From the IMG/VR virus record IMGVR_UViG_3300042564_004498, positions 81,526-145,525 of that record: a stretch of 64,000 nt of DNA. The stretch is one strand, 5' to 3'. Numbering within the stretch: the stretch's first letter is position 1; every line of letters begins with the position of its first letter. The translations under genes were made by a program, and so were the position numbers. This DNA is from a virus. Below, in pieces: positions 403 through 28,628 of this stretch. The notes under the pieces are model-generated. The model ran no database searches. It was not told the DNA's origin and worked only from the letters and a program-made list of their open reading frames with translations.

Positions 403-680
403 TTTGTTTCTAACGCCTCCATTTTAGATTTATTAATAAGATGTTCTGCCAGTGTGTAATTATCAACATTAGTTGTGATAATTGAATTAACCAAGTGTTT
501 GTGAGGAACATGAACTAAAAAATCAGTTCCGTTAAAGAATGTTAAATCATTCTTAAGTTCAATACAACCTTGAACCATTTTCAAAAACAGTTTGAATTGA
601 GTCGCGTTTACAAATGTTTCGCTCAAAAGTACACCGAATGTTTCGTGTTGAATCTTAATGTTATGTGAGTTCATGTTCAT
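399..680 (-). CDS. Hypothetical protein, first gene of the leftmost operon
   Basis: This encodes 93 residues with no recognised domain; it looks soluble. It is preceded by a promoter-like TATCTTTG element at 699-706, giving a predicted leader of about 12-14 nt that contains AAAGGG, one of the few Shine-Dalgarno-like stretches seen. That stretch is better spaced for the in-frame ATG at 674 than for the ATG at 680, so the true start may be 674. It ends overlapping the next gene by 4 nt. Function unknown. Confidence 0.6.
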   Translation of the reverse strand: MNMNSHNIKIQHETFGVLLSETFVNATQFKLFLKMVQGCIELKNDLTFFNGTDFLVHVPHKHLVNSIITTNVDNYTLAEHLINKSKMEALETK

Positions 681-698
681 ATCCCTTTGTTTAGATTA

Positions 699-730
699 CA
701 AAGATAAACATTATTTCTTTAGTAAAAAAA
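699..730 (-). promoter_or_regulatory. Host-type promoter for the 680..1 operon
   Basis: On the minus strand the -7 box TATCTTTG (706..699) matches the Bacteroidetes consensus TAnnTTTG exactly. The -33 position 20 nt upstream reads TTTT rather than TTTG, so it is a weaker match than the promoters in the RNA island. It lies just beyond the terminator of the large RNA and just before the gene starting at 680. Confidence 0.55.
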
Positions 731-738
731 TAATTAAA

Positions 739-770
739 CAAAAAAAGGTGTTACATCACTGTAACACCTT
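739..770 (-). terminator. Intrinsic terminator of the large non-coding RNA
   Basis: A perfect 10-bp stem (AGGTGTTACA at 746-755 with TGTAACACCT at 760-769, 4-nt loop) is followed on the minus strand by seven U. The U-tract exists only in the minus orientation, so it ends leftward transcription. Nothing protein-coding precedes it on that strand for more than 1 kb. Confidence 0.85.
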
Positions 771-1729
771 CTTGGCTAATACGATGAGAATACTCGTCTT
801 ATTGAGAATCTTTAGAAGGATTATTGTTTCCCTTCGTTTCCACTATCTTTTGGATAGTAATCCTCATTGCCGATTAGTTAGACTAATCACTCCTTAAGGT
901 AATAACCACTCTCTTACTACTCTACTCTCTTCAACCTTGCGAGCTAACTCAGGATTCGACTCCTTAGAGGTTTTTGGTAAAAATACGATTGAACTTGGGA
1001 TTCTTTCGTGCCACGGACCGCCCGTGACTGTGTAGGCAACTTTCGTTATCACCTGACGAACACTTTTCCGTTTTTCTGTTAGTTTTTCACCTATTGAAAA
1101 GTTTGGTTTGTGTTGTGGATGAGTCCAAGTAGAGGTCCGTCTTAGGCTTCGTTATCTTTTGAACAACAAAATACCTGTCTACTCGGTGAGATATCCCTAT
1201 CTCCATATTTTAAGATTACTTCAAACGAACACCTTGGTAGATGTTTTGTAAGGTTAGTAGCGACACCACTCGTTCTCTAACTTACCTTTCGGTTTTAAGT
1301 CCCCTCTCATATTGGAGTCCGCAATAATATTGTTGGAACAATATTTTTTGCTTGACCCCTGTGACTTATTCTTATTGTTTTTCCAAACTCAGTTCAGGAA
1401 CCCACATTCCCAAACCATCCAACCACTTTCCCTAAAGCGTCGCCCTCAATACTCAAGGTCGGATGATATGTCACTTGTATACTCGAGTTCCATTTCTGAA
1501 ACCGCAATCCTGTTAACACAACAGGTTCACTTTATCCCCCTTTCGAGGTTTATTTGACGACCATATACAGCCGATTATCGTTTATTAAATTAGTCTCAAT
1601 GTCAACCCGAAGGTCTTGATATCAACATCTAAATGGATAATAATATTTTCAAAGAACGTAATTCATATTAATGAAGGAAAGGTCAACCTTACCGAAGTGG
1701 GATTTTAACCCTTCCTTCATTTCAATTGT
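740..1729 (-). ncRNA. Large structured non-coding RNA, about 990 nt, family unknown
   Basis: The region lies between a consensus promoter (1734-1765) and a strong terminator (739-770) on the same strand and has no credible coding frame. By eye its GC content is about 43-47% in sampled lines, against about 30% in neighbouring genes, as expected of structured RNA in an AT-rich genome. Local hairpins are dense: a 10-bp stem 1670-1679/1712-1721 closes the 5' domain; others include AATATTGTT/AACAATATT near 1325-1345, CCTGTT/AACAGG near 1510-1530, CACGG/CCGTG near 1010-1026, TTTTCA/TGAAAA near 1085-1102, GATTAGT/ACTAATC near 873-889 and ACTATC/GATAGT near 842-858. Size, phage context and adjacency to tRNA genes resemble the large ornate RNA classes GOLLD and ROOL, but I cannot assign it to either. 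Confidence 0.65.
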
Positions 1730-1733
1730 TTTA

Positions 1734-1765
1734 CAAAGGTAGATGAAAGTTTTGACACTGTCAAA
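1734..1765 (-). promoter_or_regulatory. Consensus Bacteroidetes-type promoter for the large RNA
   Basis: On the minus strand TTTG (1765..1762), a 20-nt spacer and TACCTTTG (1741..1734) match the TTTG/TAnnTTTG consensus. The predicted start site is about 1729. It shares the ACAGT after the -33 box with two other promoters of this island, a sign of copying or strong constraint. Confidence 0.8.
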
Positions 1766-1784
1766 TTTTTATAAAACTTTTTTC

Positions 1785-1864
1785 TAACAATCTTACTCTG
1801 TTACTACCGATAGTGAGATTTGATTTCGGTGATTGTTAAAGACCAAATAGTGTTACCCGTTTGG
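1785..1864 (-). ncRNA. Possible small structured RNA between two promoters
   Basis: The promoter at 1869-1900 predicts a start near 1864. The transcript can form a 5' hairpin (ACCAAA/TTTGGT, 1842-1847 with 1860-1865) and a nested stem TAACAATC/GATTGTTA (1785-1792 with 1831-1838) enclosing ACCGA/TCGGT (1806-1810 with 1826-1830). There is no open frame of useful length and no clear U-tract, so the 3' end is a guess. It could instead be a leader that reads into the large RNA. Confidence 0.35.
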
Positions 1865-1868
1865 TTTA

Positions 1869-1900
1869 CAAAGATAAGAAAGTTTTTTTGAACTGTCAAA
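1869..1900 (-). promoter_or_regulatory. Consensus Bacteroidetes-type promoter (small RNA)
   Basis: TTTG (1900..1897), exactly 20 nt, then TATCTTTG (1876..1869) on the minus strand. From the -33 box to the -7 box it is nearly identical to the promoter at 2313-2344. Confidence 0.8.
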
Positions 1901-1924
1901 TCTTTTTTTAGAAATTTTGTGTTT

Positions 1925-2002
1925 ATTTTTTTAATGACCAAAGTCAAAAACCATATTTTATAACACACCCTCTTTCATGGTCTTGGGGTTATCTCCAATT
2001 GT
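1925..2002 (-). ncRNA. Possible small RNA downstream of a third tandem promoter
   Basis: The promoter at 2007-2038 predicts a start near 2002. The following stretch can pair TTGG with CCAA close to the 5' end and GACCA with TGGTC further on, and encodes only very short peptides. No U-tract terminator is visible, so both existence and 3' end are uncertain. Confidence 0.25.
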
Positions 2003-2006
2003 TTTA

Positions 2007-2038
2007 CAAAGATATGAATAACTTTTCAATTAATCAAA
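2007..2038 (-). promoter_or_regulatory. Consensus Bacteroidetes-type promoter
   Basis: TTTG (2038..2035), a 20-nt spacer and TATCTTTG (2014..2007) on the minus strand. The spacer differs from those of the other three island promoters, but the boxes and the spacing are the same. Confidence 0.75.
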
Positions 2039-2065
2039 CACTTTTTAAAACTTTTTTTTAATTAG

Positions 2066-2138
2066 TAGCGGGAGAAGGACTCGAACCTCCGACCTTATGG
2101 TTATGAGCCACACGAGCTGCCAACTGCTCTATCCCACG
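2066..2138 (-). tRNA. tRNA with CAT anticodon (Met-type)
   Basis: A 73-nt cloverleaf can be drawn: D stem GAGC/GCTC, anticodon stem TGTGG/CCATA with loop CTCATAA (anticodon CAT), T arm GGAGG-TTCGAGT-CCTTC. The acceptor stem pairs at positions 2-7 but has a C1/U72 mismatch. CCA is not encoded. The anticodon stem lacks the three G-C pairs of initiator tRNA, so this is an elongator Met or a lysidine-dependent Ile(CAU) tRNA. Confidence 0.85.
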
Positions 2139-2153
2139 ATGTTTGTTGTTAGT

Positions 2154-2224
2154 TGCGTAGGGCCGGAAACGAACCGACTTGGACTGGCTTATGAGACCAG
2201 TGAGATACCTTACCTCCCCCTCGC
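2154..2224 (-). tRNA. Second tRNA with CAT anticodon, slightly short
   Basis: A 71-nt cloverleaf: acceptor GCGAGGG against CCTACGC with one A/A mismatch, D stem GAGG/TCTC with a 7-nt loop, anticodon stem CTGGT/GCCAG around CTCATAA, T arm GTCGG-TTCGTTT-CCGGC. Only one base appears to separate acceptor and D stem, so the fold is somewhat irregular. It lies 15 nt upstream of the other CAT tRNA on the same transcript; one of the pair may be Ile2(CAU). Confidence 0.75.
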
Positions 2225-2254
2225 GATATATCATTATTTTAAAGAACTTCAGAT

Positions 2255-2306
2255 AAAAAATCCCACAAGCTACAAGGGTTTTCTCAAACTCACACTTGCG
2301 GGATTT
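2255..2306 (-). other. Terminator-like hairpin at the 5' end of the tRNA transcript
   Basis: A 12-bp stem (2258-2269 with 2295-2306, one G-U pair) begins about 2-3 nt after the predicted transcription start and is followed on the minus strand by a run of U. It therefore looks like an intrinsic terminator placed before the tRNAs, or a very small hairpin RNA. It could limit read-through into the tRNA genes or protect the 5' end. Confidence 0.5.
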
Positions 2307-2312
2307 GTTTCA

Positions 2313-2344
2313 CAAAGATAGGAAAGTTTTTTTGAACTGTCAAA
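2313..2344 (-). promoter_or_regulatory. Consensus Bacteroidetes-type promoter for the tRNA transcript
   Basis: TTTG (2344..2341), a 20-nt spacer and TATCTTTG (2320..2313) on the minus strand, with a predicted start near 2308. The 32-nt unit is almost the same as that at 1869-1900. Confidence 0.8.
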
Positions 2345-2380
2345 TCTTTTTTTAACCGCGAAACATTTTCTGGGGTGTTT

Positions 2381-2420
2381 GTCCTTTCGGACATGAACAT
2401 ATAAATATGTCCTTTTTTTT
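2381..2420 (+). terminator. Plus-strand hairpin with U-tract and a competing upstream hairpin
   Basis: GGACAT (2389-2394) pairs with ATGTCC (2407-2412), followed by eight T. GGAC (2389-2392) can alternatively pair with GTCC (2381-2384) around TTTC, and the two pairings exclude each other, as in an attenuator. No plus-strand gene is apparent upstream, so it may insulate the DUF192 gene or end antisense transcription. Confidence 0.4.
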
Positions 2421-2483
2421 AAAAATACAATAATATTATTGAAATGTCAAATAAAAATTCAAATACTATTATGTTTTCTAAAG

Positions 2484-2495: not shown

Positions 2496-2849
2496 ATGAA
2501 GGTAAGAATTAACGATAACAGTTTTAATGTAAAAACATTAATTGATAGAGAATCCCAATCAATTGGGATGATGGGTAAAGCATTTGATGGAACTTTTAAT
2601 GGATTGTTATTCTTAATGGATGGTAAGAAACAATGTTTTTGGATGAAGGGTTGTGTAATTCCATTAGACATAATCATTATAAAGAACAATGTGATTGTAA
2701 ATATACATCACGATTGTCCTCCATGTAATAATGAATTTGATTGTCCTTCCTATTGTGGAAACGGTAATATTGTATTAGAACTTGAGGGTGGTTCTTGTGA
2801 AATCCTCAACATTCAACCGGGTGATAGTATCACTTACGACTTATCTTAA
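2496..2849 (+). CDS. DUF192 (UPF0127) family protein
   Basis: This 117-residue protein has the DUF192 signature: a Gly-Met-Met-Gly stretch, then FLMDGKKQCFWMKGCVIPLD (the family's W-M-x-x-x-x-x-PLD core), a later Pro-Cys-rich part and a C-terminal ELEGG...I.PGD segment. The family has no firmly assigned role. I start at ATG 2496 rather than an upstream TTG because the intervening codons lie in AT-rich leader and a TATTTAT box ends just before this ATG. It converges with the DHH gene, overlapping its stop by 4 nt. Finding it in a phage next to tRNAs is unusual. Confidence 0.85.
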   Translation: MKVRINDNSFNVKTLIDRESQSIGMMGKAFDGTFNGLLFLMDGKKQCFWMKGCVIPLDIIIIKNNVIVNIHHDCPPCNNEFDCPSYCGNGNIVLELEGGSCEILNIQPGDSITYDLS

Positions 2850-4258
2850 TCCTCCGAAGAATTTTTAGACTCCTCAATTTTTTTCTTTAATACTTTTTGA
2901 AATTCAGTAGCAATCATTTTTGTAAACTTAACTGATGGTGAATCATCTTTCTCAGAATCATACTTATACTTACCTTGTGGTGGTCTTTTACCTCTACCTA
3001 AATAATTAAGTCCTGAGATATTGGTAATACATTTGTGACCACCAGAATTAGACTGAATTAAATCCCAAGCATTAATACCAATTTTATCCATCAATTCAAG
3101 TTCTTGTTCAGATAATTCATTGAATGGTTTTTCCATCATTCTTTCAATTTTTCCTAAGGCTTCTTCTCCACCGTCCATGAATACAAATTTTCCACCGTAA
3201 AGAGCGTCAAAGTCTTTAAAAGTAAAACCAACACTTTCAGGTCCAGCACTTGTTTCACTAACCCATTTCATAGTTGACAAAGGAATTTTCCTATCCTTTA
3301 ATTGAGATTCCCATCTAACCAAAACTTCTTGAGCTATCTCCCCAAGATTAACCCCTTTAAGTTCTCTTTCTTTTTTAAACGGATTACAAGATGCTTGAAC
3401 AAGACCCATCGGCCAAGCCATGATAAGAAAATCCGCCTCAGGATTATTTCTGAATGGTGTATATCTGTCGTAAGACCCAGGCTTAAACATACTACCCCCA
3501 CCGTATTGAAAAATAATGTTATCAGACACTGTTGGATAGTCTGCCATTTTGTCTGCATAATCTTGTGCATTTTTTTGTAAGTCTTCAGGTTTGGCGGCAT
3601 TTGTTTTTGTCATCCAAGCTCTAATGTTATTTAGTATAGACAATAAAGAAGGTTCAGAATCCATAACCAATCCTTCTAAAAATCCTGGTTTGTTTTTAAA
3701 AGCTAAAAGTAATTTGTTTATTACTAAACCTAATAACATTTTATTCTTTTGTAATGAAGAGTCTTTATCTATTCTGTAGATATAATTAACCACTTCTTTT
3801 GGTGTAATATCATGTTTTGCATAATCCGCAGAATCCACGGTATTAATCAATAATATATCAGATGATGGGAATAAATCTGTTGGTGAAACTACTTGAGAAA
3901 TAGTCTCAACATTTGAACGAGCCCCTCTAAATTGTTTGGAGGTACCCTTTTCAACACCAACTTGTTTATCGTGATGGTCTGTGTGAATCACAAACATTGG
4001 TTTACCATGAGCAAAATCTACTAGAACAGGCATTGTATCCCCTTGAGCGTCATTCTTTTTAACCGAGAACTCCTTATCACCATATTGTATAATATGGGCA
4101 CCAACAACATCAATACCGTTGTCTTCAAGGTATTTTTTCATCGCAATCGCTGTTGTTACCCCATCAAGGTCTTGGTGAAAATAAATCTCAGCTTTTTGAT
4201 ATCTTTTCTTTAAGGCGTTGATATTTCTCAACCCTGATTCTGATATAATTCTTTTCAT
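2846..4258 (-). CDS. DHH-family phosphoesterase
   Basis: The 470-residue protein carries DHH-superfamily metal motifs in order: D30-x-D32-G, D81 in VLVDFAHG, D94-H95-H96 in IHTDHHD, and an Asp in NTVDSADYA; a GGH motif lies near residue 404, as in DHHA1-type C-terminal domains. Such proteins are RecJ-like nucleases or NrnA-like nano-RNA/cyclic-dinucleotide phosphodiesterases; which applies cannot be told. The N-terminus MKRIISES resembles a tag shared by several neighbours. The gene follows the peptidoglycan-binding gene by 3 nt and is probably co-transcribed with it from upstream of 5697. Cyclic-dinucleotide cleavage would suggest an anti-defence role, which is inference only. Confidence 0.8.
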   Translation of the reverse strand: MKRIISESGLRNINALKKRYQKAEIYFHQDLDGVTTAIAMKKYLEDNGIDVVGAHIIQYGDKEFSVKKNDAQGDTMPVLVDFAHGKPMFVIHTDHHDKQVGVEKGTSKQFRGARSNVETISQVVSPTDLFPSSDILLINTVDSADYAKHDITPKEVVNYIYRIDKDSSLQKNKMLLGLVINKLLLAFKNKPGFLEGLVMDSEPSLLSILNNIRAWMTKTNAAKPEDLQKNAQDYADKMADYPTVSDNIIFQYGGGSMFKPGSYDRYTPFRNNPEADFLIMAWPMGLVQASCNPFKKERELKGVNLGEIAQEVLVRWESQLKDRKIPLSTMKWVSETSAGPESVGFTFKDFDALYGGKFVFMDGGEEALGKIERMMEKPFNELSEQELELMDKIGINAWDLIQSNSGGHKCITNISGLNYLGRGKRPPQGKYKYDSEKDDSPSVKFTKMIATEFQKVLKKKIEESKNSSED

Positions 4259-27830: not shown

Positions 27831-28628
27831 TTATAAGTAGTCAAATAAAATTGCCGTCTCATTTCTTAATTTTCTGAGAGCTTTTTCTTTAATCTGCCGA
27901 ACTCTTTCTTTAGTTAAATCAAAATCATTCCCAATATCTTCCAATGTTCTTGTTGAACCCGATAACCCAAAATAGTCTTGAATTATCAATTTTTCTCGTC
28001 CATCTAAAACATCTAACATAGAAAACAGTTTATCTTTTAAAGTATCTTCACTAGATAATCCAGCATCTGCCAATTCAGCATTAGGGTTGTTTAATATATC
28101 CAACAATGTATCTCCATCTTCATTCAATGGATTATCTAAATTAACGGTATATGGTAAATTCACAAACTTTTCAGGTAATTCAATACCAGCCCTTTCCAAA
28201 TCTTTTTTGGCCCTATGAAGTTCTTGAACCACATTAACAGGTAGACGAATAGTTCTAGCATTTTCATTTAATGATTGTAAAATAGATTGTCTAACCCACC
28301 AAACAGCATAAGAAATAAATCTCAGTCTTTTAGACCAATCAAAATTCTCAATTGCTTTCATTAATCCAAGATTACCTTCGGCAATTAAATCAGATAGTTC
28401 TAACCCTTGATTTTGATATTGTTTACTCACAGTAATTACAAAACGTAAATTACCCTCTAACAACTCTTTTTGAATCTCTTTTGTTTGTTTTTCGGTTACA
28501 TTTTCCGATAGCATTATTTCTGCTAACTCTCTTTCTCTTTCAGGTGTCATAACTCTTAATTTCCTAAGGTCTTTAAGATAGTGACTAATTTCTTCTTGAT
28601 TAATTGGAATTGACGATTTTTCTTTCAT
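27831..28628 (-). CDS. Primary-type sigma-70 factor
   Basis: The 265-residue protein has sigma regions 1.2 and 2 (EGNLRFVITVSKQY, LSDLIAEGNLGLMKAIENFD, RFISYAVWWVRQSIL, the -10-recognition helix), region 3 and region 4 with an HTH (TLEDIGNDFDLTKERVRQIK). Its length and lack of a long N-terminal extension resemble the RpoD of Bacteroidetes. It probably directs host RNA polymerase. Since several phage promoters match the host consensus, it may compete with or mimic host sigma rather than recognise a new sequence, or it may read the TATTTAT class. It follows the 28632 gene by 3 nt and ends at a terminator. Confidence 0.9.
   Translation of the reverse strand: MKEKSSIPINQEEISHYLKDLRKLRVMTPERERELAEIMLSENVTEKQTKEIQKELLEGNLRFVITVSKQYQNQGLELSDLIAEGNLGLMKAIENFDWSKRLRFISYAVWWVRQSILQSLNENARTIRLPVNVVQELHRAKKDLERAGIELPEKFVNLPYTVNLDNPLNEDGDTLLDILNNPNAELADAGLSSEDTLKDKLFSMLDVLDGREKLIIQDYFGLSGSTRTLEDIGNDFDLTKERVRQIKEKALRKLRNETAILFDYL

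What the first reader, a model, noticed from the sequence alone, without database searches (positions are those of the whole stretch)
740..1765. A roughly 990-nt orphan structured RNA with its own promoter and terminator beside phage tRNAs
Seen: on the minus strand a consensus promoter (TTTG, 20 nt, TACCTTTG) is followed about 990 nt later by a perfect 10-bp terminator stem with seven U. Between them there is no credible coding frame, GC is visibly higher than in flanking genes, and strong local hairpins occur throughout, including a 10-bp stem closing the 5' domain. Known: large ornate RNAs (GOLLD, ROOL) occur in phages, often next to tRNA genes, and form large RNA-only assemblies. Inference: this is a member of, or analogue to, those classes in a Bacteroidetes phage. 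It could be new.
Basis: partly seen in the sequence, partly recalled or inferred. Interest (0 to 1): 0.92.

Follow-up and report, generated by a model that had tools for sequence, protein, structure and literature searches.

The report
GOLLD RNA with rRNA-type leader
This is a giant phage RNA of the known GOLLD class, whose best-studied member builds hollow RNA cages; it matters mainly because it and dozens of relatives begin with what looks like the bacterium's own ribosomal-RNA "keep transcribing" signal and often sit beside a phage copy of the tRNA that starts protein synthesis.

Summary
On the minus strand, about 990 nt of non-coding, GC-raised, structured RNA lie between a Bacteroidota-type promoter and a strong terminator, beside two tRNA-Met genes. 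It is not an orphan: Rfam's GOLLD model (RF02032) matches 1186-781 end to end (323 bits, cut-off 150). That model covers only the 3' domain. I collected 231 loci that also share the 5' domain (200 full-length, 112 non-redundant). They show 80 significantly covarying column pairs against tree-based nulls, 34 of them in the 5' domain, and keep two published contacts of the 14-mer GOLLD nanocage (L20 x linker; self-complementary L21a loop).

Two features appear unreported in the literature I could search. First, the leader has a conserved order: promoter, hairpin, GTTCTTTGAAAA, RNA. This element matches the boxA-like motif of Bacteroidota 16S rRNA leaders and follows 77% of GOLLD-leader promoters but 8% of other phage promoters, so transcription probably uses the host's rRNA antitermination machinery. 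Second, neighbouring tRNAs (171 of 171 on the same strand) are strongly enriched for initiator tRNAs.

Verdict: new member of a known class with a new, testable expression signature. Cage formation, Nus-factor use and function here are inferred, not shown.

The parts
1734..1765 (-). Bacteroidota-type promoter of the GOLLD gene: TTTG - 20 nt - TACCTTTG
   Evidence: read; TTG-N18-23-TANNTTTG lies within 300 nt upstream of the core in 82 of 106 non-redundant homologues against 1.5% of mononucleotide-shuffled upstreams
1671..1720 (-). leader hairpin in the position of a boxB stem-loop, between promoter and boxA-like element
   Evidence: fold; a hairpin is predicted in this interval in homologues (56 segments, mean z -5.0, 93% below -1)
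1642..1659 (-). boxA-like element ACGTTCTTTGAAAATATT (core GTTCTTTGA at 1657-1649)
   Evidence: the 18-nt string also occurs in Bacteroidota 16S rRNA leaders L583 and L608
1635..1640 (-). conserved TTATCC of the leader, complementary to GGATAA in the 5' domain; possible long-range pairing
   Evidence: WTATCC in 64 of 106 leaders, GGATA in 85 of 106 cores, both in 56; both sides hardly vary, so pairing is untested
1187..1590 (-). GOLLD 5' domain (cap domain by analogy with env-38), not covered by the Rfam model
   Evidence: nhmmer 5'-domain profile found together with the 3' domain in 231 loci; 34 covarying pairs at E <= 0.05 in these columns
781..1186 (-). GOLLD 3' domain, Rfam RF02032
   Evidence: cmscan 323.2 bits, E 8.8e-92, model 1-416/416
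1068..1068 (-). linker position covarying with L20 (998): published intermolecular bridge B7
   Evidence: alignment columns 528 x 598, C-G 57, G-C 50, A-U 4, other 1
953..963 (-). L21a hairpin with self-complementary UCGA loop: published symmetric kissing loop B8
   Evidence: loop CGCAAG in 82 and GTCGAA in 20 of 112 homologues, a GC-to-CG swap
742..773 (-). intrinsic terminator, 14-bp stem plus U-run
   Evidence: terminator-like sites within 120 nt downstream in 59 of 105 homologues against 3 in shuffles
1869..1899 (-). second upstream promoter TTGACA-17-TATCTT(TG)
   Evidence: 70 of 101 homologues have two or more promoter matches in the 500 nt upstream
1785..1840 (-). small conserved hairpin element directly upstream of the GOLLD promoter
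   Evidence: apart from one recurring unrelated sequence context, found only 180-390 nt upstream of GOLLD where the downstream DNA is held
2065..2138 (-). initiator-type tRNA-Met(CAT): C1.U72 mismatch, GAGC/GCTC D stem
   Evidence: ARAGORN and Rfam, features
2154..2224 (-). atypical tRNA-Met(CAT)-like gene, weak score
   Evidence: 30.3 bits against cut-off 29
2239..2247 (-). second boxA-like element (GTTCTTTAA) in the leader of the tRNA pair
   Evidence: same layout in L015

Best explanation
The feature is a phage GOLLD RNA gene. SHOWN from sequence: a two-domain GOLLD RNA (5' domain 1590-1187, 3' domain 1186-781) with extensive covariation, its own Bacteroidota-type promoter, a hairpin plus boxA-like leader, and a terminator. 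INFERRED: host RNA polymerase, with the host or a phage sigma factor, starts at the promoter. NusB-S10 bind the boxA-like element and build the antitermination complex normally used for rRNA, which keeps polymerase on about 1 kb of untranslated, Rho-vulnerable RNA and may help it fold. The RNA then folds and self-assembles through the same loop contacts as the solved env-38 14-mer into an RNA shell. The shell is made during lytic growth, and the linkage to same-strand tRNAs and initiator tRNAs suggests that its role concerns translation or tRNA in the infected cell. Step likelihoods (judgement): GOLLD membership 0.99; stand-alone transcript 0.9; boxA used for antitermination 0.7; cage assembly 0.75; translation or tRNA role 0.35.
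For: Rfam hit. 200 full-length relatives. 80 covarying pairs with E <= 0.05 against 20 tree-simulated nulls, 66 in the predicted nested structure and several of the rest pseudoknotted. B7 and B8 contact signatures kept as described for env-38 (PMC12286853). Promoter 82/106. boxA-like GTTCTTTRA within 150 nt after 101/131 GOLLD-leader promoters, 13/57 tRNA-leader promoters and 33/407 other promoters; 72-fold denser than in the rest of the same loci. Promoter precedes boxA in 61 loci, most often by 24-28 nt. The same motif is the most shared 8-mer other than A-rich strings in Bacteroidota 16S leaders, 44/115 against 0.85% in shuffles. The order hairpin-boxA behind a promoter equals rrn boxB-boxA behind P2, and boxA is reported to be necessary and sufficient for factor recruitment in E. 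coli (PMC10250234).
Against: No expression, binding or structural data for this RNA. In E. coli the Nus factors were reported to have a limited antitermination role at rRNA (PMC4807359), so boxA may serve RNA folding rather than Rho resistance. About a quarter of homologues lack a recognisable boxA; the Acinetobacter phage GOLLD (L123) shows none in the 320 nt inspected. Homologues are not independent.
Confidence: 0.75

Rival explanations
1. The GTTCTTTGA leader motif is a structural part of GOLLD, for example pairing with the conserved UUCAAAAG loop of the 3' domain, and has nothing to do with Nus factors.
For: The loop UUCAAAAG is partly complementary to UUCUUUGAA, and the motif sits at a rather fixed place 32-104 nt before the core.
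Against: The G/A change inside the motif is not matched by any change in the loop: all seven A-type leaders keep the loop C. The same motif with the same preceding hairpin occurs before tRNAs and in host 16S leaders without any GOLLD. GOLLDs with a divergent 5' domain still carry it (L075, L015).
Confidence: 0.2
2. The initiator-tRNA linkage only reflects that GOLLD lives in tRNA clusters in general, with no link to translation initiation.
For: GOLLD and ROOL are known to lie near tRNA islands (PMC12286853, PMC6582537); 28 of the 61 tRNA-bearing loci lack an initiator-like tRNA.
Against: 33 of 171 nearby tRNAs are CAT tRNAs with an unpaired 1:72 position against 11 of 594 control phage tRNAs (odds ratio 12.7, p 2e-14, not corrected for phylogeny). 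In 33 of 61 loci CAT tRNAs are the only tRNAs. 15 of 119 initiator-tRNA contigs carried a GOLLD of this clade against 1 of the 115 newly fetched generic-tRNA contigs.
Confidence: 0.45
3. A new orphan class of large RNA, or ROOL/OLE/HEARO rather than GOLLD.
For: The 5' domain is in no Rfam model, and the fold is very strong.
Against: Full-length GOLLD model hit 173 bits above the gathering score; no other Rfam large-RNA family at E <= 1.
Confidence: 0.01
4. A decayed or unusual protein-coding region.
For: The stretch is as long as a gene.
Against: ORFs are no longer than in shuffled sequence in 112 homologues; base-pair covariation throughout.
Confidence: 0.01

Closest known systems
GOLLD RNA, Rfam RF02032; env-38 GOLLD 14-mer nanocage (Kretsch et al. 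2025, PMC12286853)
   Same: Complete 3' domain; two-domain architecture of nearly the same size (404 + 406 nt here, 420 + 413 in env-38); disordered-type linker; L20 x linker and L21a contacts; tRNA-Met upstream; phage genome.
   Different: The 5' domain could not be compared letter by letter with env-38. Here there is a long leader with promoter, hairpin and boxA-like element, which the paper does not describe. Assembly not tested.
ROOL RNA
   Same: Large phage RNA near tRNAs that forms an RNA-only cage (8-mer).
   Different: No Rfam ROOL match at E <= 1.
rRNA operon leader, boxB-boxA antitermination site (PMC10250234, PMC4807359)
   Same: Order promoter, hairpin, boxA, long structured untranslated RNA; boxA-like sequence identical over 18 nt to some Bacteroidota 16S leaders.
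   Different: It precedes a phage RNA, not rRNA; Nus-factor use is inferred only; no boxC was sought.
ICP1 phage 800-nt abundant non-coding RNA (PMC7567579)
   Same: Large, abundant phage ncRNA of comparable size.
   Different: ICP1 has no tRNAs; its class was not assigned there.

Membership tests
GOLLD (RF02032) | Covariance-model score above the curated cut-off over the conserved 3' domain | tested here: met
   323.2 bits against 150, model 1-416/416
GOLLD (RF02032) | Covariation-supported stems of the 3' domain | tested here: met
   46 of 80 significant pairs lie at or after column 408
GOLLD (RF02032) | Separate, less conserved 5' domain giving a total of roughly 800 nt or more | tested here: met
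   core 810 nt here, 785-889 nt in 200 relatives; a few 3'-domain loci have a divergent 5' part
GOLLD (RF02032) | Encoded in phage or prophage, often near tRNAs | tested here: met
   IMG/VR virus record of 145,525 bp; two tRNAs about 300 nt upstream
GOLLD (RF02032) | L20 x linker pairing (bridge B7) and self-complementary L21a loop (bridge B8) | tested here: met
   using loop positions inferred from the published description
GOLLD (RF02032) | Forms a closed 14-mer RNA cage | not testable with these tools
   needs cryo-EM or mass photometry
GOLLD (RF02032) | Expression rises in lytic growth | not testable with these tools
   no transcriptome
ROOL, OLE, HEARO | Rfam model match | tested here: not met
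   no match at E <= 1 in window 600-2450
rRNA-type boxA antitermination leader | boxA sequence like that of the host rRNA leader, downstream of the promoter and of a hairpin | tested here: met
rRNA-type boxA antitermination leader | Binding of NusB-S10 and change of elongation | not testable with these tools
   needs binding and transcription assays
Initiator tRNA (gene at 2065-2138) | Unpaired 1:72, A11-U24-type D stem, CAU anticodon | tested here: met
   C1.U72, GAGC/GCTC
Initiator tRNA (gene at 2065-2138) | Three consecutive G-C pairs in the anticodon stem | tested here: not met
   GTGG/CCAT flank the CTCATAA loop: two G-C pairs next to the loop only (sequence)

The most novel reading that the evidence does not exclude
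Bacteroidota phages make GOLLD as a pseudo-ribosomal RNA: tandem promoters, a boxB-like hairpin and the host's boxA put its synthesis and folding under the rRNA antitermination machinery, and it works with a phage initiator tRNA to shift translation initiation, or to store or protect initiator tRNA, during takeover of the host.
Probability: 0.25. Interest if true: 0.8.

Novelty: new member of a known kind. Interest (0 to 1): 0.5.

Why it matters
GOLLD has a solved structure but no known function, and how a phage makes a kilobase of untranslated, structured RNA without losing it to Rho has not been addressed in the papers I could read. A rRNA-type boxA leader would explain that, ties GOLLD to the ribosome-making machinery, and gives a one-mutation test. 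The linked initiator tRNAs point to translation initiation as a place to look for function. The 112-sequence alignment also covers a 5' domain that Rfam lacks and supports cage contacts in a large phage clade.

Tried and rejected
(1) Orphan RNA, ROOL, OLE or HEARO: rejected by Rfam. (2) Coding region: rejected. (3) The 16-bp hairpin at 1720-1671 as the closing stem of the 5' domain: rejected, it is leader and differs among relatives. (4) boxA-like motif pairing with the UUCAAAAG loop: no matching change seen. (5) First broad pattern scan: about 70 of the 119 hits were chance matches, removed by profile search. (6) A tRNA inside the linker, known for some GOLLDs: none in 112 loci. (7) GOLLD in Flavobacterium phage immuto, the nearest named phage by primase: none. 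(8) Searching 400 Bacteroidota genomes for GOLLD failed because no genome handle could serve as centre. (10) Weinberg 2009 and 2017 and the eLife paper I believed to report boxA at CRISPR arrays were not held. (11) Searches for papers joining GOLLD or ROOL with boxA returned none treating both.

Full report
Observation. The stem said to close the 5' domain belongs to the leader instead.

Identity. cmscan gives GOLLD, RF02032, at 1186-781 on the minus strand with 323.2 bits against a cut-off of 150, covering model positions 1-416 of 416. No other large-RNA family matches at E <= 1. The Rfam model describes only the conserved 3' domain, so 1590-1187 needed separate study. The window is bases 81526-145525 of a 145,525-bp IMG/VR virus record with a single GOLLD.

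Relatives. A first blastn found only three records among 50,697 phages, two of them about 640-kb uncultured phages. At 90% identity 112 remain. Contigs carrying it reach 261-385 kb in IMG/VR and 634-642 kb among deposited phages. Nearly all loci with only the 3' domain are cut off by a contig end; five have a diverged 5' part. The size split (404 + 406 nt) is close to that published for env-38 (420 + 413; PMC12286853).

Structure. I wrote a covariation test like R-scape's (APC-corrected G statistic, 20 null alignments simulated on the FastTree tree). 80 column pairs reach E <= 0.05, 34 with both columns in the 5' domain and 46 in the 3' domain; 66 fall in the RNAalifold nested structure and several others are crossing pairs. 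Two published inter-subunit contacts can be recognised. The L20 loop x linker position pair (window 998 x 1068) swaps C-G for G-C (57 and 50 of 112), as for bridge B7. The L21a loop carries GC (CGCAAG, 82) or CG (GTCGAA, 20), the palindrome swap described for bridge B8; this RNA has the UCGA form. This supports the RNA having the parts to assemble as env-38 does; it does not show that it does.

Leader. Alignment of leaders showed a conserved GTTCTTTGAAAA ahead of the core. TTCTTTGAAA is found within 160 nt upstream of the core in 50 of 106 loci against 0.24% of dinucleotide shuffles; a looser form in 75 against 3.5%. It lies after the promoter in 61 loci, most often by 24-28 nt, with a hairpin in between (mean z -5.0). 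As control, 101 of 131 promoter matches in GOLLD leaders are followed by it within 150 nt, against 13 of 57 in tRNA leaders and 33 of 407 elsewhere in the same loci. I then fetched 119 Bacteroidota 16S rRNA loci. TTCTTTGA is the most shared 8-mer apart from A-rich strings, in 44 of 115 leaders, mostly 79-200 nt before 16S, against 0.85% in shuffles. L583 and L608 contain ACGTTCTTTGAAAATATT, identical to window 1659-1642. I read this as boxA, the NusB-S10 site, from its sequence, its place and the rrn order boxB-boxA behind a promoter (PMC10250234). That Bacteroidota NusB binds it is inference. 70 of 101 homologues have two or more promoter matches in the 500 nt upstream, again like rRNA operons. 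A rival, pairing of the motif with the conserved UUCAAAAG loop, finds no support from matched changes. Whether the element serves Rho resistance or RNA folding is open; in E. coli the latter has been argued (PMC4807359).

tRNA context. Of 171 tRNAs within 1.5 kb of the 112 GOLLDs, all lie on the same strand; 49 have anticodon CAT; 33 of these lack a 1:72 pair and 24 have the initiator D stem. In 594 control phage tRNAs the numbers are 38, 11 and 1. Initiators lie 10-46 nt downstream or 61-475 nt upstream in 24 loci. The window's 2065-2138 gene has the unpaired 1:72 position and the initiator D stem, but only two of the three G-C pairs in the anticodon stem. The 634-kb phage L122 and the divergent L015 also show initiator-type tRNA, hairpin, boxA-like element and GOLLD in a row. 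In the reverse direction, 119 contigs found by an initiator pattern included 15 with this GOLLD, against 1 of 115 newly fetched contigs found by a generic tRNA pattern. These counts come from capped scans and related sequences and should be read as strong but not calibrated.

Host. Promoter type, the rRNA-leader match and a primase closest to Flavobacterium phage immuto (29.5% identity), with an exonuclease gene next to primase in both, point to a Bacteroidota host. immuto itself has no GOLLD.

Mechanism and novelty. The best-supported reading is a GOLLD RNA made as its own transcription unit with rRNA-like antitermination, assembling through conserved loop contacts into an RNA cage in the lytic cycle. 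The class is known, and membership rests on tested features. The boxA-type leader and the initiator-tRNA enrichment were not found in the open papers searched, but the original GOLLD papers were not readable, so priority is unproven.

Noticed in passing
window 1840-1785 (-): Conserved ~56-nt hairpin (TTAACAATCACCGAAATCAAATCTCACTATCGGTAGTAACAGAGTAAGATTGTTA) behind its own promoter; among 24 exact IMG/VR matches plus looser ones, every structured copy with enough downstream DNA lies 180-390 nt upstream of a GOLLD, with compensatory changes in the outer stem; not in Rfam. Possibly the leader of an upstream tandem promoter.
   Followed up: partly
window 2343-2239 (-): The tRNA pair has the same leader plan as GOLLD: promoter, CCCGCAAG/CTTGTGGG hairpin with U-run, then GTTCTTTAA. 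L015 has the same two-unit layout.
   Followed up: partly
window 2154-2224 (-): Odd tRNA-Met(CAT)-like gene scoring barely above the tRNA cut-off; a similar odd CAT tRNA sits near another GOLLD.
   Followed up: no
window 2036-1920 (-): A further promoter (TTTG...TATCTTTG) followed by short hairpins and no ORF between the tRNAs and the small hairpin; L016 matches this stretch.
   Followed up: no
window 27831-28628 (-): Phage-encoded sigma-70-family factor (phrog_351, E 2.6e-50); it might read the promoters of this cluster.
   Followed up: no
window 2846-4258 (-): 470-aa protein with a weak DHH phosphoesterase match, below Pfam's cut-off.
   Followed up: no
window 2499-2849 (+): DUF192 protein (E 2.9e-18) next to the tRNA leader, on the opposite strand.
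   Followed up: no
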